From Phaeacidiphilus oryzae TH49 (lineage in GTDB: Bacteria > Actinomycetota > Actinomycetes > Streptomycetales > Streptomycetaceae), in contig NZ_JQMQ01000005.1 in the NCBI RefSeq assembly GCF_000744815.1, forward strand, positions 6,467,801 through 6,531,800: 64,000 nt of DNA. Direction: 5' to 3'. The notes under the pieces are model-generated. The model saw nothing but the letters and a program-made list of their open reading frames with translations, made no database searches and was not told where the DNA came from. Position 1 is the stretch's first letter. Every line of letters begins with the position of its first letter. The position numbers and the translations under genes were made by a program. Below are positions 18,717-33,453 of this stretch, one piece after another.

Positions 18717-20003
18717 TCAGACCGTCGTCTGCGGGGTGCCGGGCACCACCCGCACCGCGTCCCGGCAGGAGTCCAGGAAGGACTCCGCGACCGGGAGGAC
18801 GATCGCGGCCGAGCGCACCCGGTGGTGCTCGGGGTCGACGCCCGGCGGGGTCGTGCCGTGGTCCCGCAGCGCCTCGGCGGCCCGCCGGAGCTTCTGCCGG
18901 GCCTTGATGATCCCGCTGTCCGCGGGGACCAGGCGCTCCTTGGTGCGGTCGACGATCGGGCCCATGCTCTCCTGGAGGGAGGCGTCCTGCATCGCGATCC
19001 CGGCCACTCCGGAGTAGGTCTCGCCGCGCTTCTGCGCCGCCCGGTCGATCAGGTAGTCGTTGTCCATGTTGGCGGCCGGCCGGTAGGTGCCGGGGATGTT
19101 CCTGCTGTGGACCCCGTGCCCGTCGATCATCGCCTGCCGCTCGGCCGCGGTGAGCGCCCGCACCGGGTGGTAGTCGAAGGAGTACGTCCAGCAGTTCTCG
19201 TCGTCGATCGGCACCCAGAAGTGGCCGTGCACCGGATGGTCGCCGCGCGGCGGCACCATCGTGAAGGCGGGCATCACATACGGGGTGATCCGCCAGTAGT
19301 AGCTGCCCTCCTCGGCGTTCCGGCGGGCGCCGACGAAGAGCCCGCCGTCGCTCTCCGCCACCTCGAAGAAGGGCTTGGTGTCCCTCATGTTGTACTCGTT
19401 GCCCTTGGCGCCCTTGAACAGCGGGTCGCTCCTCAGGCCGCCGCTGTGGAGGAAGGTGACATGGCTGGAGTCGATACCGCCCTCGAAGGCCTGCAGCCAG
19501 TTGCACTGCTGCCAGCGCTTGGAGGTGTAGGTCTGCTCCGCGGGCACGGTGGCGAACTCGAACTCGGGCAGCGGCGGCCGCTTCGCCGGGTCGCCCATGT
19601 GGGTCCACAGCACGTCGCCGATCCGCACCAGCGGGTACGCGGTGAGCTTCACGTTGGCGCAGAAGCTGGGGTTGTCGGCCTCCGAGGGGACCTCCACCGC
19701 CTGCCCGGTGACGTCGTACTTCCAGCCGTGGTACGGGCAGCGCAGCCCGGAGCCCTCGTTCCGGCCGAACCAGAGGGAGGCCCCGCGGTGGGCGCAGAAC
19801 TCGTCGACCAGGCCGAGGCGGCCGGCGCTGTCCCGGAAGGCGACCATCCGTTCGGAGAGGAGCTTGACCCGCACCGGCGGGCAGTCGTCCTCCGGCAGTT
19901 CCTCGGCGAGCAGTGCCGGTATCCAGTACTGCCGGAAGAGCTCGCCCATCGGCGTGCCGGGACCGGTCTGGGTGAGCAGCTCGTTGATGTCCTGCCTCAA
20001 CAT
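18717..20003 (-). CDS. Rieske non-heme iron oxygenase, large subunit (phthalate 4,5-dioxygenase type)
   Basis: 428 residues. The Rieske cluster ligands are in CAH...CPYH (about residues 70-92, 17 residues between the pairs). The mononuclear iron site is in DSSHVTFLH (Asp-x2-His-x4-His). 'QCNWLQAFEGGIDSSH', 'GHFWVPIDDENCWTY' and the long C-terminal 'SMGPIVDRTKERL' are typical of the phthalate 4,5-dioxygenase/vanillate-demethylase group, which works as alpha-only trimers. Electrons would come from the ferredoxin encoded directly upstream and the FAD reductase at 23.5-24.8 kb. It hydroxylates or O-demethylates an aromatic acid; the exact substrate is unknown. Confidence 0.9.
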   Translation of the reverse strand: MLRQDINELLTQTGPGTPMGELFRQYWIPALLAEELPEDDCPPVRVKLLSERMVAFRDSAGRLGLVDEFCAHRGASLWFGRNEGSGLRCPYHGWKYDVTGQAVEVPSEADNPSFCANVKLTAYPLVRIGDVLWTHMGDPAKRPPLPEFEFATVPAEQTYTSKRWQQCNWLQAFEGGIDSSHVTFLHSGGLRSDPLFKGAKGNEYNMRDTKPFFEVAESDGGLFVGARRNAEEGSYYWRITPYVMPAFTMVPPRGDHPVHGHFWVPIDDENCWTYSFDYHPVRALTAAERQAMIDGHGVHSRNIPGTYRPAANMDNDYLIDRAAQKRGETYSGVAGIAMQDASLQESMGPIVDRTKERLVPADSGIIKARQKLRRAAEALRDHGTTPPGVDPEHHRVRSAAIVLPVAESFLDSCRDAVRVVPGTPQTTV

Positions 20004-20069: not shown

Positions 20070-20390
20070 TCAGGCCTGGTCCGCCGGGACCTCGACGGAG
20101 AGGCCGTCGAGCTCCTCGGTGATCCGGATCTGGCAGGCCAGCCGGCTGGTGCCGCGCCGCTCGGCGACGGCCATGTCGAGGAGGTCCTCCTCCATGTCGC
20201 CCGGCGGCCCGACGCGCTCGGCGAACTCCTCGCCGACCCAGACGTGGCAGGTGGCGCAGGAGCAGTTGCCGCCGCACTCGCCGATGATCCCGGGCACTCC
20301 GCTGCGTACGGCGACGGCCATCACGGTGTCTCCCACCTCGGCGTCGACGGAGTACTCGGTACCGGCGCTGTTGAAGATGACCTTGGACAA
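20070..20390 (-). CDS. [2Fe-2S] ferredoxin, adrenodoxin/putidaredoxin type
   Basis: 106 residues. Cluster ligands are in CGGNCSCATC (C-x5-C-x2-C) plus the last Cys in 'SRLACQIRI'. The 'MAVAVRSGVPGIIGECGGNC' loop and the C-terminal 'LSVEVP' match adrenodoxin-like ferredoxins. It passes electrons from an FAD reductase to an oxygenase and is the first gene of the Rieske operon. It lies behind operator B and a plausible TTGTCC-N18-TCTAAT promoter on the minus strand. Confidence 0.92.
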   Translation of the reverse strand: MSKVIFNSAGTEYSVDAEVGDTVMAVAVRSGVPGIIGECGGNCSCATCHVWVGEEFAERVGPPGDMEEDLLDMAVAERRGTSRLACQIRITEELDGLSVEVPADQA

Positions 20391-20412: not shown

Positions 20413-20431
20413 TGGTATGTCCATTAGACCA
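20413..20431. promoter_or_regulatory. Operator-like site B, ferredoxin/Rieske operon
   Basis: TGGTATGTCCATTAGACCA on the plus strand, 23 bp in front of the ferredoxin start. It is nearly identical to site D (24830-24848): TGGTWWGTCCATTRRACCA covers both. It lies across the region expected to hold the -10 box of the minus-strand promoter. Confidence 0.7.
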
Positions 20432-20501: not shown

Positions 20502-20529
20502 ATAGATCGTGACAGAAGGGGCCGCCCGC

Positions 20530-21672
20530 ATGCCGAAGGACGCCATCGTCAACGAGACCCTGGCCGCGAAGTTCGCCACCGAGAAGGACTCCCCGTACAC
20601 CCGCTGGGTCGCGGACGAGGGTCTGGAGATCATCGCCGCCCACTACGTCCCGGACCTCCGCACGGTCGAACTCAGGCCGTGGGAGCGGCGCGGCGGCCGC
20701 GGGGTCTTCATCAACCACGAGGCCTCCCGGACCTCCAACGACTGCTACGTCTGCGAGATCCCGGCCGGCGGGAAGCTCGCCCCGCAGCGGCAGCTGTTCG
20801 AGGAGATGATCCTGGTCCTGGACGGCCACGGATCCACCCGGGTGTGGAACGACGCGGGCCGCGAGGTCACCTTCGAGTGGGGCCCCGGCGCGCTCTTCGC
20901 CATCCCGCTCAACGCCCACCACCAGCACTTCAACGGCTCCGGCAGCGGGCCGGCCCGGTTCGTCGCCTCGACCAACATGCCGCCCGCGCTCAACCTCTAC
21001 GACGACCCGGAGTTCATCTTCGGCACCGCCCGCGACTTCCCGGGCCGCTTCGACGGCGAGCCGGACTACTTCTCGCCCAAGGGCGAGCAGAAGGGCCTGC
21101 TGCTGGACACCAACTTCGTCGCGGACGCCGCCGCGCTGCCGCTGATCGAGGCCAAGGAGCGCGGGGCCGGCGGCGGCCACATCCGCTTCGCGATGGCCAG
21201 GGGCTCGATGAACAGCCACATCTCGCAGTTCCCGATCGCCACCTACAAGAAGGGCCACCGGCACGGCCCGGGCGCGCACGTCATCATCCTCTCCGGGCAC
21301 GGCTACAGCCTGATGTGGCCGGAGGGCGAGGAGCCGCGCCGCTACGAATGGGGCCCCGGCACCCTGATCGTGCCCCCCAACATGTGGTTCCACCAGCACT
21401 TCAACACCGGTACGGAGCCGGCGCGGTACCTCGCCTTCAAGCACGAGACGGTGTCCGTGCGCAACGCCCAGGGGGTGCCCAAGGCCTGGATCAGCCGGCG
21501 GATCGGCGGCGACCAGATCGACTACGCCGACGAGGCCCCGGTGGTCCGCCGGCTGTTCAGCGAGGCGCTGGCGAAGCACGGGCTCAAGCCGGAGATGGCC
21601 GAGGCCTACGCGAACGAGCTGGCCACCCTGCCCCCGCAGCCCGGCGAGGCCGGCGCCCCGGCCTCCGCCTGA
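20530..21672 (+). CDS. Bicupin protein, possible aromatic-ring dioxygenase
   Basis: About 380 residues with two cupin barrels. The N-terminal barrel has lost the HxH pair (PQR in its place) but keeps 'HHQHFN' in motif 2. The C-terminal barrel has a full set: HRHGPGAH followed by 'FHQHFN', that is, four His. This is like gentisate dioxygenase relatives with one active barrel. I prefer ATG 20530 (GAAGGGG 8 bp upstream) over the in-frame GTG 20509, which would lie within 8 bases of the expected transcript start. The stop overlaps the eutA-like gene. It may be the missing ring-cleavage enzyme of the locus. Confidence 0.82.
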   Translation: MPKDAIVNETLAAKFATEKDSPYTRWVADEGLEIIAAHYVPDLRTVELRPWERRGGRGVFINHEASRTSNDCYVCEIPAGGKLAPQRQLFEEMILVLDGHGSTRVWNDAGREVTFEWGPGALFAIPLNAHHQHFNGSGSGPARFVASTNMPPALNLYDDPEFIFGTARDFPGRFDGEPDYFSPKGEQKGLLLDTNFVADAAALPLIEAKERGAGGGHIRFAMARGSMNSHISQFPIATYKKGHRHGPGAHVIILSGHGYSLMWPEGEEPRRYEWGPGTLIVPPNMWFHQHFNTGTEPARYLAFKHETVSVRNAQGVPKAWISRRIGGDQIDYADEAPVVRRLFSEALAKHGLKPEMAEAYANELATLPPQPGEAGAPASA

Positions 21673-23234
21673 TGCCGGAGACACCGCCGGTCTGGGCCCC
21701 GCACTGGTCGCCTGGCGACCACGACCACCACCACGACCACGACGAGGACGAACTCCCGCTGACCGGCAACCCGCTCTGGCAGCAGGACAACGTGCTGCTG
21801 CGCAGCGTCGGCATGGACATCGGCTCCTCCGGCACCCAGGTGCTCTTCTCCGAGCTCCATCTCCGCCGCATCAGCGAGGACCTGACCAGCCGTTACATCG
21901 TGGTCCGGCGGGAGACCCGGTACCTCTCCCCGGTCGCCCTCACCCCGTACGCGGACGCCGAGCTGATCGACGCCGGGGCGCTCGGCGGGATCATCGACCG
22001 GGCCTACGCCGCCGCCGGAGCGGTCCCGGAGGAGATCGACACCGGGGTGGTGATCCTCACCGGCGAGGCGCTGCGCCGCCGCAACGCCGAGGCGATCGCC
22101 GGGATCCTGGCCGAGCGGGGCGGGGAGCTGGTCACCGCGGCCGCGGGCCACCATATGGAGGCGATGCTCGCCGCCTACGGCTCGGGCGCCGCGCAGCGCT
22201 CGTACCGGAGCGGCGGCCGGATCCTCACCGTGGACATCGGCGGCGGCACCACCAAGCTCGCCCTGGTCGAGGGGGGCCGGGTGCGGCACACCGCCGCCGT
22301 GCGGATCGGCGGCCGGGCGCAGGTGGTGGACGCCGCGGACCGGATCGTCCGGCTCGACCCGGACGGCCGCCGGCACGCCCTGGCCGCGGGCTACGACTGG
22401 CGGTTGGCGGACACCGCGCCCGCCGAGGCGCGCGCCGAGGTGGCGGAGGGGATGGCCTGCGCCCTCCTCTCCGTGCTGGCCGGGGCGCCGGAAGCCGGTC
22501 TCTACCTCACCGAGCCGCTTCCCAGGGAGGCCCTGACCGGCCTGGACGGAGTGCTCTTCTCCGGCGGGGTCGCGGAGTACGTCTACCACCGCGAGCGGCG
22601 GGAGTTCGGGGACCTCGGCCCGCTGCTCGGCCGGGCGCTGCGGCGCCGGGCCGAGGCGGGGGAGCTGCCGGCCCCGCTGCTGCCGGCGGGGGAGTGCATC
22701 CGGGCCACCGCGCTGGGGGCCTCCGAGTACAGCGTCCAGCTGAGCGGGAACACCGGGGACCTGGCGGCGGCCGAGCGGCTGCTGCCGAGGCGGAACCTCC
22801 AGGTCGCCCGGGTGCACTGCGCCCTCGGCGAGGCCCCGATCGAGGCCGGCCGGGTCGCCGCGTCGGTACGGGAGGCGCTGCGCTCGCTCGACCTGCTGGA
22901 GGCCGGGCCGGCCACGGGAGACGTGGCGCTCGCTCTGGAGTGGAGCGGCCCGCCGAGCTACGAACGGGTCAGCGCCTTCGCGCGCGGTGTGCGGGACGGC
23001 GCGGCGGCCCGACTGGCCGGCGGGCGGCCGCTCTACCTGGTGCTGGACGGCGATCTGGCGATGACCCTCGGGCGGCTGCTCCGTGAGGAGCTGGGCGTCG
23101 GCGGCGACCTGCTGGTGATCGACGGGATCGCGCTGCGCGAGTTCGACTGGATCGACATCGGGCGGGTCCGCTTCCCGTCCAACACCGTGCCGGTGACCAT
23201 CAAGTCGCTGGTCTTCGGGGAGGGCGCGGACTGA
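21672..23234 (+). CDS. eutA: EutA-like ammonia-lyase reactivating ATPase, orphan
   Basis: 520 residues. 'GMDIGSSGTQVLFSEL', 'VVILTGEALRRRNAEAIAGI', 'ILTVDIGGGTTKLALVEGG', 'VLFSGGVAEYVYH' and the C-terminal 'DWIDIGRVRF...VPVTIKSLVFG' follow remembered EutA from start to end. EutA is an ASKHA-fold ATPase that expels damaged cobalamin from ethanolamine ammonia-lyase. No eutB or eutC lies in the window. The N terminus carries an extra His/Asp cluster (HDHHHDHDEDE) that may bind metal. It is translationally coupled to a bicupin gene (ATGA), which suggests it was recruited to serve another enzyme. Confidence 0.85.
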   Translation: MPETPPVWAPHWSPGDHDHHHDHDEDELPLTGNPLWQQDNVLLRSVGMDIGSSGTQVLFSELHLRRISEDLTSRYIVVRRETRYLSPVALTPYADAELIDAGALGGIIDRAYAAAGAVPEEIDTGVVILTGEALRRRNAEAIAGILAERGGELVTAAAGHHMEAMLAAYGSGAAQRSYRSGGRILTVDIGGGTTKLALVEGGRVRHTAAVRIGGRAQVVDAADRIVRLDPDGRRHALAAGYDWRLADTAPAEARAEVAEGMACALLSVLAGAPEAGLYLTEPLPREALTGLDGVLFSGGVAEYVYHRERREFGDLGPLLGRALRRRAEAGELPAPLLPAGECIRATALGASEYSVQLSGNTGDLAAAERLLPRRNLQVARVHCALGEAPIEAGRVAASVREALRSLDLLEAGPATGDVALALEWSGPPSYERVSAFARGVRDGAAARLAGGRPLYLVLDGDLAMTLGRLLREELGVGGDLLVIDGIALREFDWIDIGRVRFPSNTVPVTIKSLVFGEGAD

Positions 23235-23507: not shown

Positions 23508-24811
23508 TCAAGCCGCCGTCGCCTCCTTCGGGGGGGAGGGGAGAAGGGTCTTCAAGGGGACCGATACGTCGGCCGCCGCCCGCGGCGGGAACGTCGCGCC
23601 CTGGTCCAGCGCCCGTCGCGCGGCCATGTAGTCGGCGGGAGAGTTGACGCACTCGGCGCACAGGAGGCGCTCGGCGCGGTAGTAGAGGACGGAGAAGCGC
23701 TCGGTGGCCGGATCCCCGCGGAGGACCGTACGGTCGTGGCCGGTCGGCAGGCCGGCGATCTGCAGTTTCAGGTCGCCCTGGAAGGACCAGAACCAGGGGG
23801 TCGGGAGCGAGGCGGCCCCGGCGCCCGGCCGAGCAGCGCGGCGGCCGCCGCCTGCGCCTGGGCGACCGCGTTCTGCACGGACTCCAGGCGTATCCCGGCG
23901 CCCTCGCCCCCCGCCGCCCGCCGTACCGTGCAGTCGCCGGCCGCGACCACCCCGGGATTGCTGGTGCGGGAGGACTCGTCGACGAGGATGCCGCCCCGGC
24001 ACTCGAGGCCGAGGCGTTCGGCGAGCTCGGTGCGCGGGAGCGCGCCGGCGCCGATCAGCACCAGGTCGGCGGGGACGGCGGTCCCGTCGGCGAGCCGTAC
24101 GCCGGTCACCCGGCCGTCCCCGCCCTCGCCCTCGGTGAACCCCGCCACCGGCGCGGACAGCCGGACCTCCGTCCCGCGTCGCCGGTGCGCCGCCAGGAAG
24201 AACGCCGAGAGCCGGGGGCCCACCGCCCGGCCCAGCAACCGGTCGGCCGCCTCCAGGACGACGGCCTCGCAGCCCGCGGCGCGCGCGATCGCCGCCGCCT
24301 CCAGCCCGATGAACCCGCCGCCCACCACCGCGATCCGCCGCGCCCCGGACAGCCGTGAGCGCAGCTCGGCCGCCTCGTCCTGGCCGCGCAGATAGCAGAC
24401 GCCGTCGAGTCCGGCGCCCGGCAGCCGGTCGAGCCGGCGTGCGGCGGCCCCGGTGGCGAGCGCCAGCCGACGGAAGCGGACGGTGCCGCCGCCGGCCAGC
24501 CGCGCGCTCCCCGCGCCCGAGCGGCCGGGTTCGTCCAGGGCGAGGTCCTCCACCGCGGCCCCGGTGACCAGGGTGATGTCCTGGTCCCGGTAGAACTCCG
24601 GGCCGCGCAGCGCCAGCGCCGCCCGGTCCACCCGGCCGGCCAGGAACTCCTTGGAGAGCGGCGGCCGCTGGTACGGCGGATGCGGCTCGTCCCCGACCAG
24701 CACGATCGGCTCGGTGTCGCCGAACTGCCGTAGTGAGACCGCGAGTTGGAGCCCCGCCTGGCCCGCGCCGACGATCAGGGTGCCCGCACTGAGTTGTTCC
24801 CTCTCCGGCAC
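23508..24811 (-). CDS. FAD-dependent ferredoxin reductase, apparent frameshift
   Basis: The N-terminal part starts at GTG 24811 after GGGAG. It holds the FAD motif 'IVGAGQAGLQLA', 'PPYQRPPLSKEFLAG', a second Rossmann motif 'RIAVVGGGFIGLEAAA' and the late FAD motif 'NPGVVAAGDCTVR'. Near 23817-23820 the frame is lost in a run of four Gs (minus strand). One more G joins it to the C-terminal domain ('PTPWFWSFQGDLKLQIAG...FSVLYYRAERLLCAECVNSPADYMAARR'), which is typical of this reductase family. The enzyme would move electrons from NAD(P)H to the ferredoxin at 20070-20390. It is probably intact in the organism. Confidence 0.8.
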
Positions 24812-24829: not shown

Positions 24830-24848
24830 TGGTTAGTCCATTGAACCA
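24830..24848. promoter_or_regulatory. Operator-like site D, FAD reductase gene
   Basis: TGGTTAGTCCATTGAACCA lies 19 bp upstream of the reductase start. It has the same length and arrangement as site B, with TGGT/ACCA ends and a shared GTCCATT core. Confidence 0.7.
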
Positions 24849-24918: not shown

Positions 24919-25027
24919 ATGAAGGGTGACGTGGTCCACGCCACCGGCCGCAGGCCAGCACCGCCGCGCCGCGCGCATTCCACCCGTACGAACCGGAGCC
25001 GGACGGCCCCGGACCAAGGGGAACTTC

Positions 25028-26038
25028 ATGAGCGACAAGAAGCAGGGGCGGGTCTTCCTCCGGGGCATCACCTCCGAGAGCTACGGCCTCAACGAGTTCC
25101 GCCGGCGGCAGCTCGCCGCGGAGCGGGTGCGGGACGACTCGGTGGTGGTGGACGACGCCAAGGTCGGCCACTCCGGGGACTCCGCGCAGTCGCGCACCTG
25201 GTGGCGGATCGGGCCGGGCGACGACCCGTTCCTCACCCAGAGCCTCCAGGTGCACTTCGTCGAACTGCCGCCGCAGAGCTCCAACCACGGCCACGGCCAC
25301 CAGAACGAGGCCGCCTTCTACATCCTGGAGGGCCGCGGCTACGAGATCCACGACGACCAGAGGTACGAGTGGGAGCAGGACGACCTGGTCATCGTCCACA
25401 CCGACTCGGTGCACCGACACTTCAACCCCTATGACAGCACCGCCCGCTGCCTGATCTTCAAGGCCAAGTCGCTGTGGATGTACCTCGGCCTGGTCCAGCA
25501 GGGCCGCAGTGGGCCGATCGAGGACGCGGACCGCTACGGCCCGCGCCAGGACTGGTCGCAGCTGTGGACCCCGGACGTGGAGAAGAAGCGCAAGGTGGTG
25601 AAGTCCGCCGACACCCCGTGGGAGCTCACCCCGCTGGGCAGGGTCCGCACCATGTCCCGCCCCGGCGACGACGTCCGGACGTTCAGTGTGGACACCTACG
25701 TGCTCGACATCCCGGCGGGCAGCCGCTCCGGCCGGCGCTGGCACATGGCCGACGAGGTGCTCTATGTGAAGTCCGGCTCCGGCTACAGCCTCCACTGGCA
25801 GGTGGAGGCGGAGATCGCGGAGAAGTACCACGCCCGCGTCGCACTGGAGCCCACCCGGCACGAGTTCAAGGCCGGCGACACCGTCTATGTCCCGCACAAC
25901 ACCGTGGCCCAGCACTTCTCCGCGGACGGCGAACCGGTCAGCCTGATCTCAGGTCAGAACCGGATCTTCAAGCAGCTCGGCTACGACCGTACGGTCTACC
26001 TGGAGAACGCCCCCGAGTACGACGAGGCCAACGGCTGA
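25028..26038 (+). CDS. Second bicupin protein, possible ring-cleavage dioxygenase
   Basis: 336 residues with two cupin barrels. The first has HGHGHQNEA (HxH...E) and 'VIVHTDSVHRHFN', a complete metal site. The second keeps 'RRWHMADEVLYV' and 'GDTVYVPHNTVAQHF', a weaker site. The size and domain order resemble gentisate/1-hydroxy-2-naphthoate dioxygenases. ATG 25028 has AAGGGG about 7 bp upstream. It is followed closely by a methyltransferase and an MFS carrier in one operon. Its active barrel is the N-terminal one, the reverse of the bicupin at 20530. Confidence 0.82.
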   Translation: MSDKKQGRVFLRGITSESYGLNEFRRRQLAAERVRDDSVVVDDAKVGHSGDSAQSRTWWRIGPGDDPFLTQSLQVHFVELPPQSSNHGHGHQNEAAFYILEGRGYEIHDDQRYEWEQDDLVIVHTDSVHRHFNPYDSTARCLIFKAKSLWMYLGLVQQGRSGPIEDADRYGPRQDWSQLWTPDVEKKRKVVKSADTPWELTPLGRVRTMSRPGDDVRTFSVDTYVLDIPAGSRSGRRWHMADEVLYVKSGSGYSLHWQVEAEIAEKYHARVALEPTRHEFKAGDTVYVPHNTVAQHFSADGEPVSLISGQNRIFKQLGYDRTVYLENAPEYDEANG

Positions 26039-28295: not shown

Positions 28296-29072
28296 TCAGG
28301 ACTTGCGCTTGCGGCCGCCCCGCGCCGGAGCGGGATGCAGGCGCCGCTCCGTGCGGGACAGGTGGTCGCTCATGATCTGCGACGCCGTCTCCGCGTCCCC
28401 CTCGCGCAGCGCCGCGAGGATCTTCCGGTGCTCGGACAGCCCCCGCCGCCCCATCTCCGGCGCGGTCGCCTGCGCGGTCTCCAGGGACATCAGCAGCGGT
28501 CCGTGGAAGGAGCGGACCAGCAGCTCGAACGCGGAGTTGTGGGTGGCGGCGGCCAGCCGGGTGTGGAACTCGACCGACAGCTCGACGTCGTAGTGGCCGG
28601 CCTTGAGCGCGGCCTCCTGCTCCTCGCAGATCCGCTCCAGATCGGCGAAGTCCTCCTCCTCGGCCGCCTCGGCGAGCACCGGCATGATGCCGACCTCCAG
28701 CACCCTGCGGACCTGCGTCACCTCGCTCGGCGAGACCGAGGAGAGGGTGAGGAGGTCGATGATGCTGGCGCCGACCCGCTCGCTGCTCGGCTGGGTGACG
28801 AAGGCGCCGCCGTGCGCCCCCACCCTGATCTCCACCAGGCCGCTGGCCTCCAGCACCCGCAAGGCCTCGCGCACGGTGACCCGGCTCACGCCGAACCGCT
28901 CGCACATCTCCCGCTCCGGCGGCAGGCGGTCGCCCGGAGTGAGCTGCCCGGAGTGGATGAGGGAGCGCACCTGGTCCACGATCAGCGCCGAGATGCGCCG
29001 GTCGTTCACCGCTGTGAGCAGGCTGCTCGAACGATCGTCCGGCGCCTTGTCGGTCGTCGCTCGACGCGGCAT
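28296..29072 (-). CDS. FadR-type GntR regulator, probable controller of the catabolic locus
   Basis: 258 residues. The winged helix reads 'LIHSGQLTPGDRLPPEREMC...FGVSRVTVREALRVLEASGLV'. The all-helical FCD domain carries candidate metal/ligand residues in 'VEFHTRLAAATHN' and 'EHRKILAALREGD'. The C terminus is basic. ATG 29072 is chosen because the upstream in-frame extension has no ribosome site. It is divergent from an ABC importer operon, and two copies of the 19-bp locus motif lie in between. Such regulators are usually repressors released by a pathway acid. Confidence 0.88.
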   Translation of the reverse strand: MPRRATTDKAPDDRSSSLLTAVNDRRISALIVDQVRSLIHSGQLTPGDRLPPEREMCERFGVSRVTVREALRVLEASGLVEIRVGAHGGAFVTQPSSERVGASIIDLLTLSSVSPSEVTQVRRVLEVGIMPVLAEAAEEEDFADLERICEEQEAALKAGHYDVELSVEFHTRLAAATHNSAFELLVRSFHGPLLMSLETAQATAPEMGRRGLSEHRKILAALREGDAETASQIMSDHLSRTERRLHPAPARGGRKRKS

Positions 29073-29122
29073 GCGAGGGTCCTCTCTGTCCTGACTGACG
29101 GCTGTCCCCAGCCTATCCGATG

Positions 29123-29218
29123 TGGTCATACCAATAGGCCCGCTGCCCCGCCGCCAATCAGCCGCCGGCCCGGAGAAAGTGCCTCCGCAGCCATTGCAAT
29201 GGTCATACCGTCAGTCCA
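29123..29218. promoter_or_regulatory. Operator-like sites F and G between gntR and the ABC operon
   Basis: Site F, TGGTCATACCAATAGGCCC (29123-29141), includes TGGTCATACCA, an ideal FadR-group palindrome of the TNGTNNNACNA form. Site G, TGGTCATACCGTCAGTCCA (29200-29218), lies 30 bp before the binding-protein start. Both begin TGGTCATACC. Together they fit autoregulation of gntR and control of the importer. Confidence 0.72.
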
Positions 29219-29247
29219 GAATGACGTTGATCCTGAGAGGGGCACCC

Positions 29248-30348
29248 ATGCACATCGCACGGAAACTCCGCAGATCCCCCCGCCGCGCGGCCGGCGCACT
29301 GGCCGGGGTGCTGCTGCTGGCGGGGCTCAGCGCCTGCGCCGGCGCGGCCTCCGCCACCGGGGTGGACGCCCGCCCGCAGCCCGCGCGCTCGCCGGCCCAA
29401 CTCCTGCCGGAGGCGCGGAAGGAGGGCTCCGTCGTCTGGTACACCACCTTCGCCGACGACGACGTCAACCACATGATCGCGGCCTTCCAGAAGACCTATC
29501 CGGGAATCCGGGTGAAGGCGCTGCGGCTCAGCGCCGACCAGCTGCCCACCCGGCTGGTCACCGAGCAGCGCGGCGGAAAGTACACCGCCGACGTGATCTC
29601 GGCCGACTGCGAGCCCGTCTACCAGCTGATCAAGGTCGGCACCCTCGCGCCCTACGCCGCTCCGCAGCAGATGGCACTGCCGCCCCAGCTGCGCGATCTA
29701 CCGGACGGTTACCGCAATGTCGTCTACGTCCTCACCAGCACCATCGCCTACAACCCGGAAGCGGTCAGGAAGGCGGGGCTGCAACCGCCGACGTCCCTCC
29801 AGGACCTGACGAAGCCCCAGTGGCGCGGCCGGTTCTCCATCGACCCGAGCGCGATCAACTGGTACGAGAGCCTGATCTCCTCGATGGGCCACGCGGCGGC
29901 ACTGCATCTGGTGGAGGAGCTCGGGAACAACGATCCGCAGCTGGTGGAGAGCCACACCCAGTCGCTCACCCAGGTGCAGAGCGGCGAGCCGGCCGCCTCG
30001 GTGAACGCCTACGGATACAAGGCGTCGGCGCTGTCGAAGAAGACGCCCACCCGGATGGCCTTCAGCAACACCGACCCACTGCCCTCCGCCGCGGCCCTGG
30101 CGGAGCTGGCGAACAGGGCACCGCACCAGGCGGCCGCGGAGCTCTTCCTGGACTGGATCATGTCGCCCGCCGGGCAGCGGATCGTCGTCCAGGTCACCAA
30201 CCACACCGTACTGGGCGAGACCGCGGCCGACGACAAGAGCGTCTGGAACCCGGCGAAGTGGAAGCCGGCCTGGTCCCTCCCGGTCATCACCGCCGACACT
30301 TACAACCGGTACCTGACGGAGTATCAGAAGGCGCTTCACGACGGGTGA
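29248..30348 (+). CDS. ABC transporter substrate-binding lipoprotein (FbpA/PotD-like)
   Basis: 366 residues. The signal peptide is basic (RKLRRSPRRAA) with a hydrophobic core and lipobox LAGLSAC, so it is lipid-anchored outside the membrane. 'EARKEGSVVWYTTFADDDVNHMIAAF' is the start of the family-1 extracellular binding proteins used for Fe3+, polyamines, phosphonates or organic acids. No Tyr pair typical of iron ligands is obvious. ATG 29248 has GAGAGGGG upstream. First gene of the importer operon; probably takes up the locus substrate. Confidence 0.88.
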   Translation: MHIARKLRRSPRRAAGALAGVLLLAGLSACAGAASATGVDARPQPARSPAQLLPEARKEGSVVWYTTFADDDVNHMIAAFQKTYPGIRVKALRLSADQLPTRLVTEQRGGKYTADVISADCEPVYQLIKVGTLAPYAAPQQMALPPQLRDLPDGYRNVVYVLTSTIAYNPEAVRKAGLQPPTSLQDLTKPQWRGRFSIDPSAINWYESLISSMGHAAALHLVEELGNNDPQLVESHTQSLTQVQSGEPAASVNAYGYKASALSKKTPTRMAFSNTDPLPSAAALAELANRAPHQAAAELFLDWIMSPAGQRIVVQVTNHTVLGETAADDKSVWNPAKWKPAWSLPVITADTYNRYLTEYQKALHDG

Positions 30349-30525: not shown

Positions 30526-32319
30526 ATGAGCCTGACCACCAGATCCCGCTCGGCCCCGCCGCCCCCGCCGCCCGTGCCGGAAGCCGCCGCGCCGCGCGTC
30601 CCGCACCGCCGATGGGAGGCACTGCTGGGCTGGTTCCGCGACCCCCGGCACCTCCTGCTGACCGCCGTGGCGATCGTCGTCGCCTATCTGGCGGTGGTGC
30701 CCGCGGCCACCATGGCCGTCGCCAGCCTGCAGTCCTCCTTCCTCTCCGTGGGCCCGGTGCAGTGGACCTTCCGCCACTACGCGGAGACCCTGGGCGACGG
30801 CGACTTCTGGGCGATGGCCGGCAACTCCTTCGTCTACGCCGTCTCGGTCTCCGTCATCTGCACGGTCGTCGGCTTCGCCCTGGCCTGGCTGGTCACCAGG
30901 ACCAACACCCCGGCCAAGTGGTTCGCCCGACTCGCCGCGCTGATCCCGCTGATCGTGCCCGGCATCCTCAACACCGTCGCCTGGGCGCTGCTCTTCGCCC
31001 CGCACACCGGCCTGCTCAACGAGCTCTTCCGGGCGGTCGGCCTGCCCGCCTTCGACATCTACTCACTGCCCGGGATGGTGCTGGTGCAGTCGATGCACGT
31101 GGTGCCGGTGGCCTTCCTGATGGGCAGTGCCGCCTTCGCCACCATGGACTCCTCGCTGGAGGAGGCGGCGCTCAGCTCCGGTGCCCCGCCGCGGCGGGTG
31201 TTCCGGCTGGTGACCGTGCGGATGATCCGGCCCGCCGTGATGTCCGCCGCGCTGCTGATGTTCGTGCAGACCATCTCCACCTTCGAGGTGCCGCAGCTGA
31301 TCGGCGTCCCCGGGCACACCTTCGTCTTCGTCAGCCGGATCTACAAGGCGCTGCAGACCTTCCCCACCGACTACGGCTCGGTCGGCGTGATCGGCATCTT
31401 CATCCTGGTCGTGGCCGGACTGGGACTGTGGCTCTCCCGGCGGGTGGGCGGCGGCGGGGCGGCCACCCAGACCATCAGCGGCAAGGGCTTCCGCCCCGGC
31501 ACCACCGACCTGGGCCGCTGGCGCTGGCTCGGTCTCGCCGCCTCCGTGCTCTTCTTCCTGGTCGCGGTCGCCCTGCCGCTGCTGATGCTGCTCTGGTCCT
31601 CCCTGCTGCCCGGCTACGAACCGCCGTCCGCGTCCGCCCTCCGCCATCTCACCCTGGCCAACTACCGTGCCGTGCTCCACACCCCCGACCTCACCGCCTC
31701 GGTCCGCAACAGCCTGGTCACCGCGTTGATCGCGGGGGCGGTCGTGACCGTCCTCAGTTCGCTGGTCGCCTACGTCACGGTCAAGACCAAGGTGCGCGGC
31801 CGGGCCCTGCTGGACGGGCTGGCCACCGTGCCGATCGCGGTGCCCAGCGTGGTGATGGGCGTCGGCATCCTCTACTGGTACCTCACCGCGCCGATCCGGC
31901 TGCACCTGTACGGGACGCTGGCCATCCTGGTGATCGCCTTCGTCACCATCGGCCTGCCGTACGGGATGCGGTACATCGCCCCGGGAATGGCCCAGATCAA
32001 GGACGAACTGGAGGAGGCCGCCGCGACCAGTGGGGCCACCTGGTGGCGGACCTTCCGCCGGGTGGTGGTGCCGCTGCTGGCGCCCTCGCTGCTCTCCGCC
32101 TTCCTCTACACCGTGATCGTCGCCTTCCGGGAGATCTCCGCGGCGATCTTCCTCTACACCCAGGACACCCAGGTCGTCTCGGTGACGATCTATCAGCAGT
32201 GGTCCAACGGCAGCTATCCGATCGTGGCCGCGCTGGGTGTGCTGATCGTCGTGTTCCTCGCCGTCGTGGTCGGACTGGTCCGGCTGGTCGGCGGCCGGGC
32301 CGGCCTCCAGCGCGGCTGA
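30526..32319 (+). CDS. ABC transporter permease, fused two-domain (FbpB-like)
   Basis: 597 residues with about 12 membrane helices in two homologous halves. The cytoplasmic EAA loops are 'SSLEEAALSSGAPPRRVFRLVTV' in the first half and 'DELEEAAATSGATWWRTFRRVVV' in the second, so one chain replaces two permease subunits, as in FbpB/iron and 2-aminoethylphosphonate-type importers. The N-terminal 27 residues are Pro-rich and cytoplasmic. It lies between the binding lipoprotein and the ATPase genes. Confidence 0.9.
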   Translation: MSLTTRSRSAPPPPPPVPEAAAPRVPHRRWEALLGWFRDPRHLLLTAVAIVVAYLAVVPAATMAVASLQSSFLSVGPVQWTFRHYAETLGDGDFWAMAGNSFVYAVSVSVICTVVGFALAWLVTRTNTPAKWFARLAALIPLIVPGILNTVAWALLFAPHTGLLNELFRAVGLPAFDIYSLPGMVLVQSMHVVPVAFLMGSAAFATMDSSLEEAALSSGAPPRRVFRLVTVRMIRPAVMSAALLMFVQTISTFEVPQLIGVPGHTFVFVSRIYKALQTFPTDYGSVGVIGIFILVVAGLGLWLSRRVGGGGAATQTISGKGFRPGTTDLGRWRWLGLAASVLFFLVAVALPLLMLLWSSLLPGYEPPSASALRHLTLANYRAVLHTPDLTASVRNSLVTALIAGAVVTVLSSLVAYVTVKTKVRGRALLDGLATVPIAVPSVVMGVGILYWYLTAPIRLHLYGTLAILVIAFVTIGLPYGMRYIAPGMAQIKDELEEAAATSGATWWRTFRRVVVPLLAPSLLSAFLYTVIVAFREISAAIFLYTQDTQVVSVTIYQQWSNGSYPIVAALGVLIVVFLAVVVGLVRLVGGRAGLQRG

Positions 32320-32355: not shown

Positions 32356-33453
32356 ATGATCGAGATAAGCGGACTGACCAAGCGCTTCACCGGTAGAGCG
32401 GTGACCAGGAACGCCGTGGACGCCGTGGACCTGTCCATTCCCGAGGGGCGCCTGGTGACCCTCCTCGGCCCGAGCGGCTGCGGCAAGACCACCACCCTGC
32501 GGCTGATCGCCGGTCTGGAGCGGCCGGACAGCGGCGAGATCCGGATCGGCGGCAAGCTGGTCTGCGCCCCCGGCCAGGGCGTGTACGTCGGCGCCCACCA
32601 GCGGCCGATCGGCGTGGTCTTCCAGTCCTACGCGGTGTGGCCGCACATGACCGCCGCGGAGAACGTGATGTTCCCGCTGCGCCAGGGGCAGCGCCGGGTG
32701 CCCGCCGCCGAGGCCAGGCGGAAGGCGATGGCGGCGCTGGACCTGGTCGGTCTCGCCGACCTCGCGGACCGGCCGGCGCCCGCCCTCTCCGGCGGCCAGC
32801 AGCAGCGCGTCTCGCTGGCCCGGGCGCTGGTCAGGGAGCCCGAGGTGCTGCTCCTCGACGAGCCGCTGAGCAACCTCGACAAGGGCCTGCGGGACCGGGT
32901 GCGGGACGAGATCCGCGCCGTCCAGCAGCGGCTCGGCATCACCACCGTCTTCGTCACCCACGACCAGGACGAGGCGCTGGCCGTCTCCGACGAGGTGGTC
33001 GTGATGAACCTCGGCCGGATCGTGGAGCGAGGGGCCGCCCAGGACGTCTACGCCACCCCGCGCGAGGAGTTCACCGCCCGCTTCATGGGGATCTCCAACA
33101 GCCTGCCGGGCGCGGTGATCTCGGTCGCGGACGGGGTGGCCGAGGTCGAGGTGGCGCACGGCAAGCTGAGCTGCCTGGTCTCCGACGGTCTCGGCGCGGG
33201 CGACCGGGTCAACGTCTTCGTCCGCCCGGAGAGCCTCGGCCTCTCCCGCAAGGGCGGTGCGGAGCGCGGGGGCTGGCAGGGCACCGTGGAGTTCTCCATC
33301 TACCACGGCGACTGCTGGGACTACCACGTCCGGGTCGGCGACGACCTCCTCCGCTCCCGCATCTACCGCGCGAAGGCGGGCCTGGCGCACGGCGACCCGG
33401 TGTACGTGGTCCCGGAGGAGGAGTCGGCGATCGCGCTGCCCGCGGGGGCCTGA
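32356..33453 (+). CDS. ABC transporter ATPase (FbpC/PotA-like)
   Basis: 365 residues. Walker A GPSGCGKTT, Q-loop 'VFQSYAVWPHM', signature LSGGQQQR, Walker B VLLLDEP and switch His in 'VFVTHDQDEAL'. The C-terminal TOBE domain runs from about residue 245, with 'VFVRPESLGLS'. It completes the importer with the two preceding genes (36-bp gap). Probably energises uptake of the substrate degraded by the neighbouring enzymes. Confidence 0.92.
   Translation: MIEISGLTKRFTGRAVTRNAVDAVDLSIPEGRLVTLLGPSGCGKTTTLRLIAGLERPDSGEIRIGGKLVCAPGQGVYVGAHQRPIGVVFQSYAVWPHMTAAENVMFPLRQGQRRVPAAEARRKAMAALDLVGLADLADRPAPALSGGQQQRVSLARALVREPEVLLLDEPLSNLDKGLRDRVRDEIRAVQQRLGITTVFVTHDQDEALAVSDEVVVMNLGRIVERGAAQDVYATPREEFTARFMGISNSLPGAVISVADGVAEVEVAHGKLSCLVSDGLGAGDRVNVFVRPESLGLSRKGGAERGGWQGTVEFSIYHGDCWDYHVRVGDDLLRSRIYRAKAGLAHGDPVYVVPEEESAIALPAGA

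What the first reader, a model, noticed from the sequence alone, without database searches (positions are those of the whole stretch)
21672..23234. EutA-like reactivase without ethanolamine ammonia-lyase, coupled to a bicupin
Full-length EutA similarity including the C-terminal VPVTIKSL segment, but no eutB/eutC in 64 kb. The gene overlaps the bicupin start-stop, shares the locus operator, and has an added His/Asp-rich N terminus (HDHHHDHDEDE). An ATPase that clears damaged cofactor in an aromatic pathway is unexpected. It may reactivate a metal enzyme such as the bicupin or Rieske oxygenase.
Basis: partly seen in the sequence, partly recalled or inferred. Interest (0 to 1): 0.75.

Follow-up and report, generated by a model that had tools for sequence, protein, structure and literature searches.

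The report
EutA-like ATPase paired with a bicupin
A protein annotated as a repair factor for a vitamin-B12 enzyme looks instead like the constant partner of a different metal enzyme (a bicupin) in soil bacteria; its histidine-rich, metal-binding-type ends suggest an unrecognised ATP-driven helper that loads or renews that enzyme's metal.

Summary
In detail: 21672-23234 encodes a full-length EutA-family ATPase, start-stop coupled to a bicupin, with a His/Asp-rich N terminus. The genome (7.8 Mb, 99.9% complete) has no EutB or EutC match. It is no strain oddity: in 297 Streptomycetaceae genomes the gene and this bicupin occur in exactly the same 12. For 79 of the 80 closest relatives kept from a genome-wide scan (Actinomycetota, Pseudomonadota) the genome carries a bicupin of this family; in six it lies on another contig. 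EutA and bicupin subtypes match in 58 of 58 linked pairs. A 100/100 branch separates these EutAs from five eutBC-linked EutAs and one unannotated. 77 of 80 carry an N-terminal His/Asp motif; 47 of 48 pseudomonadotal ones also end in long HGHSHDH-type tails, rare elsewhere in the clusters (9 of 1046 other genes reach 6 His in 20). Thirteen betaproteobacterial loci and one Phyllobacterium plasmid have a nickel/cobalt-transporter-type gene nearby (two with NikR); three encode EutA-His linker-ABC permease fusions. Most likely an ATP-driven metallochaperone/reactivase of the bicupin, probably for nickel or cobalt. Partnership is well supported; metal and mechanism are inferred.

The parts
21672..23234 (+). 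EutA-family (ASKHA) ATPase, 520 aa, partner of the bicupin
21717..21752 (+). His/Asp-rich N-terminal segment DHDHHHDHDEDE (residues 16-27)
   Evidence: His/Asp motif at this place in 77 of 80 relatives;
21810..21839 (+). phosphate-1 motif GMDIGSSGTQ (D49, G51 invariant in 58 rows; motif name recalled)
22230..22256 (+). phosphate-2 motif VDIGGGTTK (D188, G190, G191, T193 invariant in 58 rows; motif name recalled)
22560..22571 (+). adenosine motif SGGV (residues 297-300, invariant in 58 rows; motif name recalled)
20509..21672 (+). bicupin1, the EutA partner (an ATG at 20530 may be the true start; inference)
21256..21279 (+). C-terminal cupin metal motif 1: H250, H252, and H257 in the usual Glu place (assignment by the recalled cupin motif)
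21391..21399 (+). C-terminal cupin metal motif 2: H295-Q-H297
20413..20431 (+). palindromic operator TGGTATGTCCATTAGACCA before bicupin1-EutA
24830..24848 (+). same operator before bicupin2
24926..26038 (+). bicupin2 (metal ligands kept in the N-terminal cupin, often lost in the C-terminal one)
18717..20003 (-). Rieske oxygenase with LigXa_C domain
20070..20390 (-). 2Fe-2S ferredoxin
23768..24811 (-). pyridine nucleotide-disulphide type reductase
28296..29129 (-). GntR/FCD regulator, candidate binder of the operator
   Evidence: the link to the operator is inferred
29122..30348 (+). ABC solute-binding protein
30526..32319 (+). ABC permease (BPD_transp_1); relatives are fused to EutA in three betaproteobacterial loci
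32356..33453 (+). ABC ATPase

Best explanation
This is a member of a distinct EutA clade that has left ethanolamine ammonia-lyase and become the dedicated helper ATPase of a bicupin, probably an oxygenase. Proposed mechanism: the His/Asp-rich ends capture a divalent metal, most likely nickel or cobalt, which in some lineages is brought in by a NicO-type transporter of the same gene cluster and/or by the cluster's ABC importer. The actin-fold ATPase core docks on the bicupin and, using ATP as EutA does on its B12 enzyme, opens the 3-4 His site of the C-terminal cupin to insert metal or to exchange a wrong or oxidised metal. Shown here: gene, intact ATPase motifs, partnership, conserved metal-binding-type ends, intact bicupin metal site. 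Inferred: the bicupin's reaction, metal identity, physical docking, ATP-driven insertion or exchange.
For: Co-occurrence: 12 of 297 Streptomycetaceae have the EutA and exactly those 12 have the bicupin. Of the 80 closest relatives (at least six of these loci are contigs also met, so the sets overlap), 63 have a bicupin (150 bits or more) in the fetched stretch; of the other 17, 16 have one in the genome (11 of 12; 5 of 5, which also held L070 and L113). Matching subtypes in 58 of 58 pairs on one strand within 3.5 kb, distance correlation 0.95. Separate clade, 100/100. His-rich ends: C-terminal in 47 of 48 pseudomonadotal and 0 of 32 actinobacterial relatives, N-terminal motif in 77 of 80, none in the core; 9 of 1046 other genes in these loci reach 6 His in 20 aa, three of them CobW-family. 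NicO-type gene in 13 of 80 loci, same strand, at most 3.2 kb away (Pfam confirmed for the five tried); in 12 genomes searched it is the only PF03824 match in 11. CobW/HypB/UreG-family GTPase with a His-rich stretch in L074, L080, L115. NikR in L115 and with HoxN in Phyllobacterium. Three EutA-His linker-permease fusions. Bicupin H250, H252, H295, H297 in 40 of 40 rows. PMC4416304 (abstract and passages seen): a nickel cupin dioxygenase of Streptomyces works with a 3His/1Glu or a 4His site.
Against: NicO was found in only 13 of 80 loci, all betaproteobacterial, so perhaps one event; none in the 32 actinobacterial loci. Four of 41 genomes with this EutA have no PF03824 match anywhere (G312, G322, G329, G333), so NicO is not required. 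In Phyllobacterium HoxN is on the opposite strand and next to EutA_p1, the subtype without a His tail; neither HoxN/NikR nor the YjbE-type gene was labelled near the same pairs in two Sinorhizobium records. EutA_p1 (0 of 17 with 6 His in 20) is also paired with a bicupin (12 of 16 adjacent), so the tail is not strictly required. In actinobacteria the tail is short (27 of 32 reach 4 His in 20 aa, 6 of 32 reach 6). Only 36 of 78 EutA genes are directly beside a bicupin on the same strand. One genome of 80 (a 3.1-Mb bin) has no bicupin match. His tails also bind Zn, Co or Cu (recalled). Co-occurrence of linked genes is partly co-inheritance. The permease fusions could mean that the transporter is the physical partner.
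Confidence: 0.6

Rival explanations
1. Metal buffer coupled to uptake: the EutA-like protein works mainly with the ABC importer or NicO transporter, receiving or sensing incoming metal (or a metal-chelating substrate), and the bicupin is only the downstream beneficiary.
For: EutA-permease fusions through the His-rich linker in L069, L073, L087; the permease gene follows EutA directly in a number of pseudomonadotal loci; NicO in the cluster in 13 of 80.
Against: 23 of the 63 loci with a bicupin have no separately labelled permease in the fetched stretch (L087 among them carries it fused to EutA); EutA_p1 and EutA_p2 sit beside their own bicupins; subtypes match the bicupin pair by pair.
Confidence: 0.17
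2. Repair only: it renews an oxidised iron centre of the bicupin (or of the Rieske oxygenase), and the His tail is a side function.
For: Inherited EutA mechanism (removal of damaged cofactor with ATP; PMC5821096, passages seen); a Rieske label in 36 of the 63 loci with a bicupin.
Against: No Rieske label in the other 27 (whole genomes not searched for it); His tails and NicO/NikR/CobW neighbours are not explained by pure iron repair.
Confidence: 0.12
3. It is a genuine ethanolamine ammonia-lyase (or other B12-enzyme) reactivase that was separated from its enzyme.
For: PF06277 membership; EutB present in 6 of 41 relatives' genomes tested, one of them a 50-residue fragment.
Against: No EutB and no EutC match in the own genome; no EutB/EutC label in any of the 80 loci; 12 of 14 EutB-bearing Streptomycetaceae lack this EutA; separate clade; equivalog cut-offs not met.
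Confidence: 0.03
4. The fold is used for a different ATP chemistry, e.g. as a kinase or ligase on a pathway intermediate.
For: ASKHA folds include kinases (recalled); the gene lies in a catabolic-looking cluster.
Against: Subtype matching with the bicupin and the His-rich ends are not explained.
Confidence: 0.05

Closest known systems
EutA, ethanolamine ammonia-lyase reactivase (PF06277)
   Same: Same family over its full length, intact ATP-binding motifs, often near the metal enzyme it may serve.
   Different: No EutBC match in the genome, separate clade, partner is a bicupin, His-rich ends (at most 2 His in 20 aa in the six non-clade EutAs checked), permease fusions in three relatives.
HypB / UreE / UreG type nickel chaperones
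   Same: Nucleotide-hydrolysing core and/or His-rich metal-binding tail (HypB passages in PMC7055735; the His-rich UreE terminus and the Bradyrhizobium HypB that binds 18 nickel ions per dimer seen only as reference titles there).
   Different: HypB is a G3E P-loop GTPase (same passages); this is an actin-fold ATPase, and the client is a cupin, not urease or hydrogenase.
Nickel quercetinase QueD (cupin dioxygenase of Streptomyces)
   Same: Cupin dioxygenase whose metal site works as 3His/1Glu or 4His and which is active with Ni (PMC4416304, abstract and passages).
   Different: A word search of its main text has no hit for 'chaperone'. The present bicupins are two-domain (QueD being single-domain is recalled) and distant from solved structures (best sequence match gentisate 1,2-dioxygenase 3bu7, E 3.6e-9).
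HscA and corrinoid-activating ASKHA proteins (recalled, no call)
   Same: Actin-fold ATPases acting on metal cofactors.
   Different: They handle Fe-S clusters or corrinoids, not bare divalent metal for a cupin.

Membership tests
EutA family (PF06277) | full-length match above the curated cut-off | tested here: met
   322 bits against 27, positions 3-474/475
EutA family (PF06277) | ASKHA nucleotide-binding motifs intact | tested here: met
   D49, G51, D188, G190, G191, T193, S297-V300 invariant in 58 rows
Ethanolamine ammonia-lyase reactivase | EutB and EutC in the same genome | tested here: not met
Ethanolamine ammonia-lyase reactivase | NCBIfam equivalog score | tested here: not met
   190-244 bits against 598-952
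Ethanolamine ammonia-lyase reactivase | groups with eutBC-linked EutA in a tree | tested here: not met
   a 100/100 branch separates the two sets, but the tool warns of long branches, E. coli above all
Ethanolamine ammonia-lyase reactivase | ATP-dependent release of damaged cobalamin from EAL | not testable with these tools
   needs assay
Nickel/cobalt metallochaperone | His-rich metal-binding-type tract | tested here: met
   strong in Pseudomonadota, short in most actinobacteria
Nickel/cobalt metallochaperone | genomic link to Ni/Co transport or regulation | tested here: inconclusive
   13 of 80 loci plus a Phyllobacterium plasmid; 0 of 32 actinobacterial loci; 4 of 41 genomes have no PF03824 match at all
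Nickel/cobalt metallochaperone | binds and transfers metal to a client | not testable with these tools
   needs protein
Bicupin metal enzyme (the partner) | complete His metal site | tested here: met
   H250, H252, H295 in 40 of 40 rows; H257 in 29 of 40

The most novel reading that the evidence does not exclude
A new class of metal insertase: actin-fold (ASKHA) ATPases of EutA descent that load or exchange bare nickel (or cobalt) in cupin oxygenases, in some lineages tethered by a poly-His linker straight to the importer.
Probability: 0.38. Interest if true: 0.92.

Novelty: new variant of a known kind. Interest (0 to 1): 0.8.

Why it matters
Most metalloenzymes are presumed to take metal from buffered cell pools (start of abstract of PMC4192464, seen in the listing); a dedicated ATP-driven loader would change that for these cupins and would predict nickel or cobalt in an uncharacterised group of catabolic bicupins. 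It would also show that an enzyme-repair ATPase of the B12 world has been re-used for another metal enzyme, and it exposes a likely misannotation (the Phyllobacterium relatives are annotated as EAL reactivating factor). The idea can be tested directly with two genes.

Tried and rejected
Considered and rejected: EAL or other B12 reactivase (no EutBC match; separate clade). Rieske oxygenase as the main partner (no label in 27 of 63 loci with a bicupin). Strain-specific accident (pair found across Actinomycetota, Alpha-, Beta- and Gammaproteobacteria). Chance His tract (conserved in most relatives; absent from the core and rare in neighbours).

Led nowhere: PDB sequence search with the EutA profile gave only MreB, guanosine pentaphosphate phosphohydrolase and EutJ matches. 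Sampling the class of G334 (321 genomes) gave one genome, G334, with the bicupin at E 1e-30 and three genomes with a long EutA match, G334, G348 (39%, partial) and G482 (33%); G348 and G482 have no bicupin match. The other listed matches among its 185 matching genomes are short motif hits of about 26 bits or less, and the list was cut. Literature: ten searches for EutA with cupin, metallochaperone, nickel/histidine-rich or reactivating factor, 'EutA-like/homolog/family/domain', 'ethanolamine ammonia-lyase reactivating (factor)', and cupin or bicupin with nickel, chaperone or metallochaperone listed no paper whose title or shown abstract start describes this pairing (one search showed 20 of 650). 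The library holds open-licence PMC papers only; passages of three papers were read, the rest seen as listings. The 'EutA homolog' papers are on ectoine; taken from the listing to be a name clash, not opened.

Counting cautions: the first His count (67 of 80, from the printed fraction 0.84) used mechanically long ORFs and may include sequence upstream of true starts; one search repeats it on the 45 residues before the core. In one search, among families of at least five members, c32 (1 of 5) and TctC (1 of 29) also reach 6 His in 20. Two of the 80 EutAs (partial fit) were left out (78 used). One search used same-strand pairs within 3.5 kb, cupins of more than 300 bits, bicupin2 left out, each cupin used once, four pairs added for the distance test; a cupin_p2-labelled neighbour of one EutA seen fell out, and in some loci the cupin nearest to the EutA is a cupin_p1 on the other strand. 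Three loci (L053, L070, L085) fail the N-terminal pattern; L053 and L070 have near forms. EutB was sought in 41 of the 80 genomes, NicO in the same 41. Subtype and neighbour labels are best BLAST hits to window and Phyllobacterium proteins.
Full report
What is there. The 520-aa ORF at 21672-23234 is a full-length EutA-family protein (PF06277, 7e-96), translationally coupled by TGATG to a 387-aa bicupin. Its ATPase motifs are intact and invariant in an alignment of 58 rows. The genome, 7.8 Mb and 99.91% complete, has no EutB, no EutC and no second EutA match.

The pair is conserved. A plasmid search found the bicupin in 4 records, which are the 4 rhizobial records with two EutA places each. In 297 Streptomycetaceae genomes the EutA occurs in 12, the bicupin in the same 12, EutB in 14, two of them shared. 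63 of 80 have a bicupin in the fetched stretch. The genomes of the other 17 were searched whole: 11 of 12 and 5 of 5 have one; the miss, G299, is a 3.1-Mb bin. In six of these the closest bicupin lies on another contig, as the contig lengths differ; for L081 the EutA is over 100 kb from either end of its 231-kb contig and for L110 about 27 kb from the nearer end of a 177-kb one, so linkage alone does not explain the co-occurrence. Many of the others are short contigs where a break is as likely. EutB was found in 6 of the 41 genomes tested; no EutB or EutC is labelled in any of the 80 loci.

Matched subtypes. There are three EutA and three bicupin subtypes by best BLAST hit. In 58 pairs on one strand within 3.5 kb the subtypes match 58 times (44, 13 and 1), also in six loci that hold two pairs; distance correlation 0.95, reached by 0 of 2000 permutations (the permutation ignores shared ancestry). 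Directly beside a bicupin (600 nt, same strand) are 36 of 78 EutAs of the window's subtype and 12 of 16 of subtype p1. In Noviherbaspirillum humi (G334) three EutAs and three bicupins share the same three contigs, two pairs adjacent. A maximum-likelihood tree of 62 rows puts the bicupin-linked EutAs on one side of a 100/100 branch from five eutBC-linked EutAs and one without annotation, with a warning for long branches.

Metal signs. In Pseudomonadota 47 of 48 relatives have at least 8 His in the 90 residues after the core, for example HTHGKGHSHGHSHSHTHGHSHDHGDGHHHHH in L071; all 48 have at least 4 His in 20 in the 45 residues before the core, as have 27 of 32 actinobacterial ones, which have no C-terminal tail; the core has none. 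Among 1046 other genes called in these loci, 9 reach 6 His in 20; three of those nine are CobW/HypB/UreG-family GTPases, in L074, L080 and L115 (that such GTPases are metallochaperones is recalled). A distant streptomycetaceous relative (L030) has HGHSHGHNHSHGHSHGHGHGHHHDDH. The rhizobial EutA_p2 keeps DLDHEHE, EutA_p1 has nothing of the kind. The six non-clade EutAs have at most 2 His in 20.

Transport. In 13 of 80 loci a NicO-type gene lies on the same strand at most 3.2 kb from EutA (PF03824 confirmed for all five tried). In 12 of these genomes searched whole it is the only PF03824 match in 11. All 13 are betaproteobacterial, so they may count as one event, and four of 41 genomes with this EutA have no PF03824 match at all. 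Phyllobacterium has HoxN (opposite strand) and NikR directly after EutA_p1 and a YjbE-type gene near EutA_p2, but these were not labelled near the same pairs in two Sinorhizobium records. L115 has NikR too. In L069, L073 and L087 EutA, a His-rich linker and an ABC permease form one ORF of 1158-1198 aa.

The client. The bicupin's C-terminal cupin keeps H250, H252, H295 and H297 in 40 of 40 rows, with His at the usual Glu place in 29 of 40; the N-terminal cupin has Gln at the two HxH places in 25 and 28 of 40. Bicupin2, not adjacent to a EutA here, tends to the reverse: its N-terminal ligands stand in 18-19 of 19, while position 250 is Tyr or Arg in 17 of 19 and position 252 His in 7 of 19. A 4His site is compatible with nickel in QueD (PMC4416304, abstract and passages). 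The cluster (Rieske oxygenase, ferredoxin, reductase, amidohydrolase, RraA-like, zinc ADH, alpha/beta hydrolase, PanB-like, RpiB, ABC importer) looks catabolic for an aromatic acid; this and the bicupin's reaction are inferred, and the substrate is not known.

How it most likely works. EutA removes damaged cofactor from its enzyme with ATP (PMC5821096, passages). Keeping that ATPase cycle but with a bicupin as client, and adding metal-binding ends, gives a chaperone that opens the client's metal site and hands over or swaps the metal. Nickel or cobalt is favoured by NicO, NikR and CobW neighbours, but not shown. My odds: partnership about 0.93, metal delivery or renewal about 0.65, nickel or cobalt about 0.5.

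Limits.

Noticed in passing
L069:4486-8025, L073:10001-13477, L087:9899-13495: EutA, a His-rich linker and an ABC permease in one reading frame, in three betaproteobacterial records.
   Followed up: partly
L074:5781-6830, L080:16174-17211, L115:13100-14272: CobW/HypB/UreG-family GTPase genes with a His-rich stretch in the same loci, another sign of metal traffic.
   Followed up: partly
window 24926-26038 and its relatives: Bicupin2 keeps its metal ligands in the N-terminal cupin and has often lost those of the C-terminal one, the mirror image of bicupin1; in Pseudomonadota relatives it appears as neighbouring single-cupin genes of about 200 aa.
   Followed up: partly
Streptomycetaceae sample: 12 of 14 genomes with EutB show no EutA match with this query, so EAL there may work without EutA or with a distant one.
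   Followed up: no
window 23508-24811: The reductase is 347 aa here, while its cluster of relatives has a median of 426 aa (mechanical ORFs), and another ORF on the same strand (23508-24002) overlaps its end in another frame; possible frameshift or sequencing error.
   Followed up: no
G306, G307, G308 (bins of L096, L108, L111): 10 to 13 places matching the bicupin per genome, partial ones included: a large expansion of this bicupin family.
   Followed up: no
L018:29796-34328: Second cupin-EutA pair of Phyllobacterium lies near a gene annotated YjbE family putative metal transport protein.
   Followed up: no
L069, L073: Record names say Bordetella parapertussis, but these are metagenome bins with this catabolic cluster; the species label is doubtful.
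   Followed up: no
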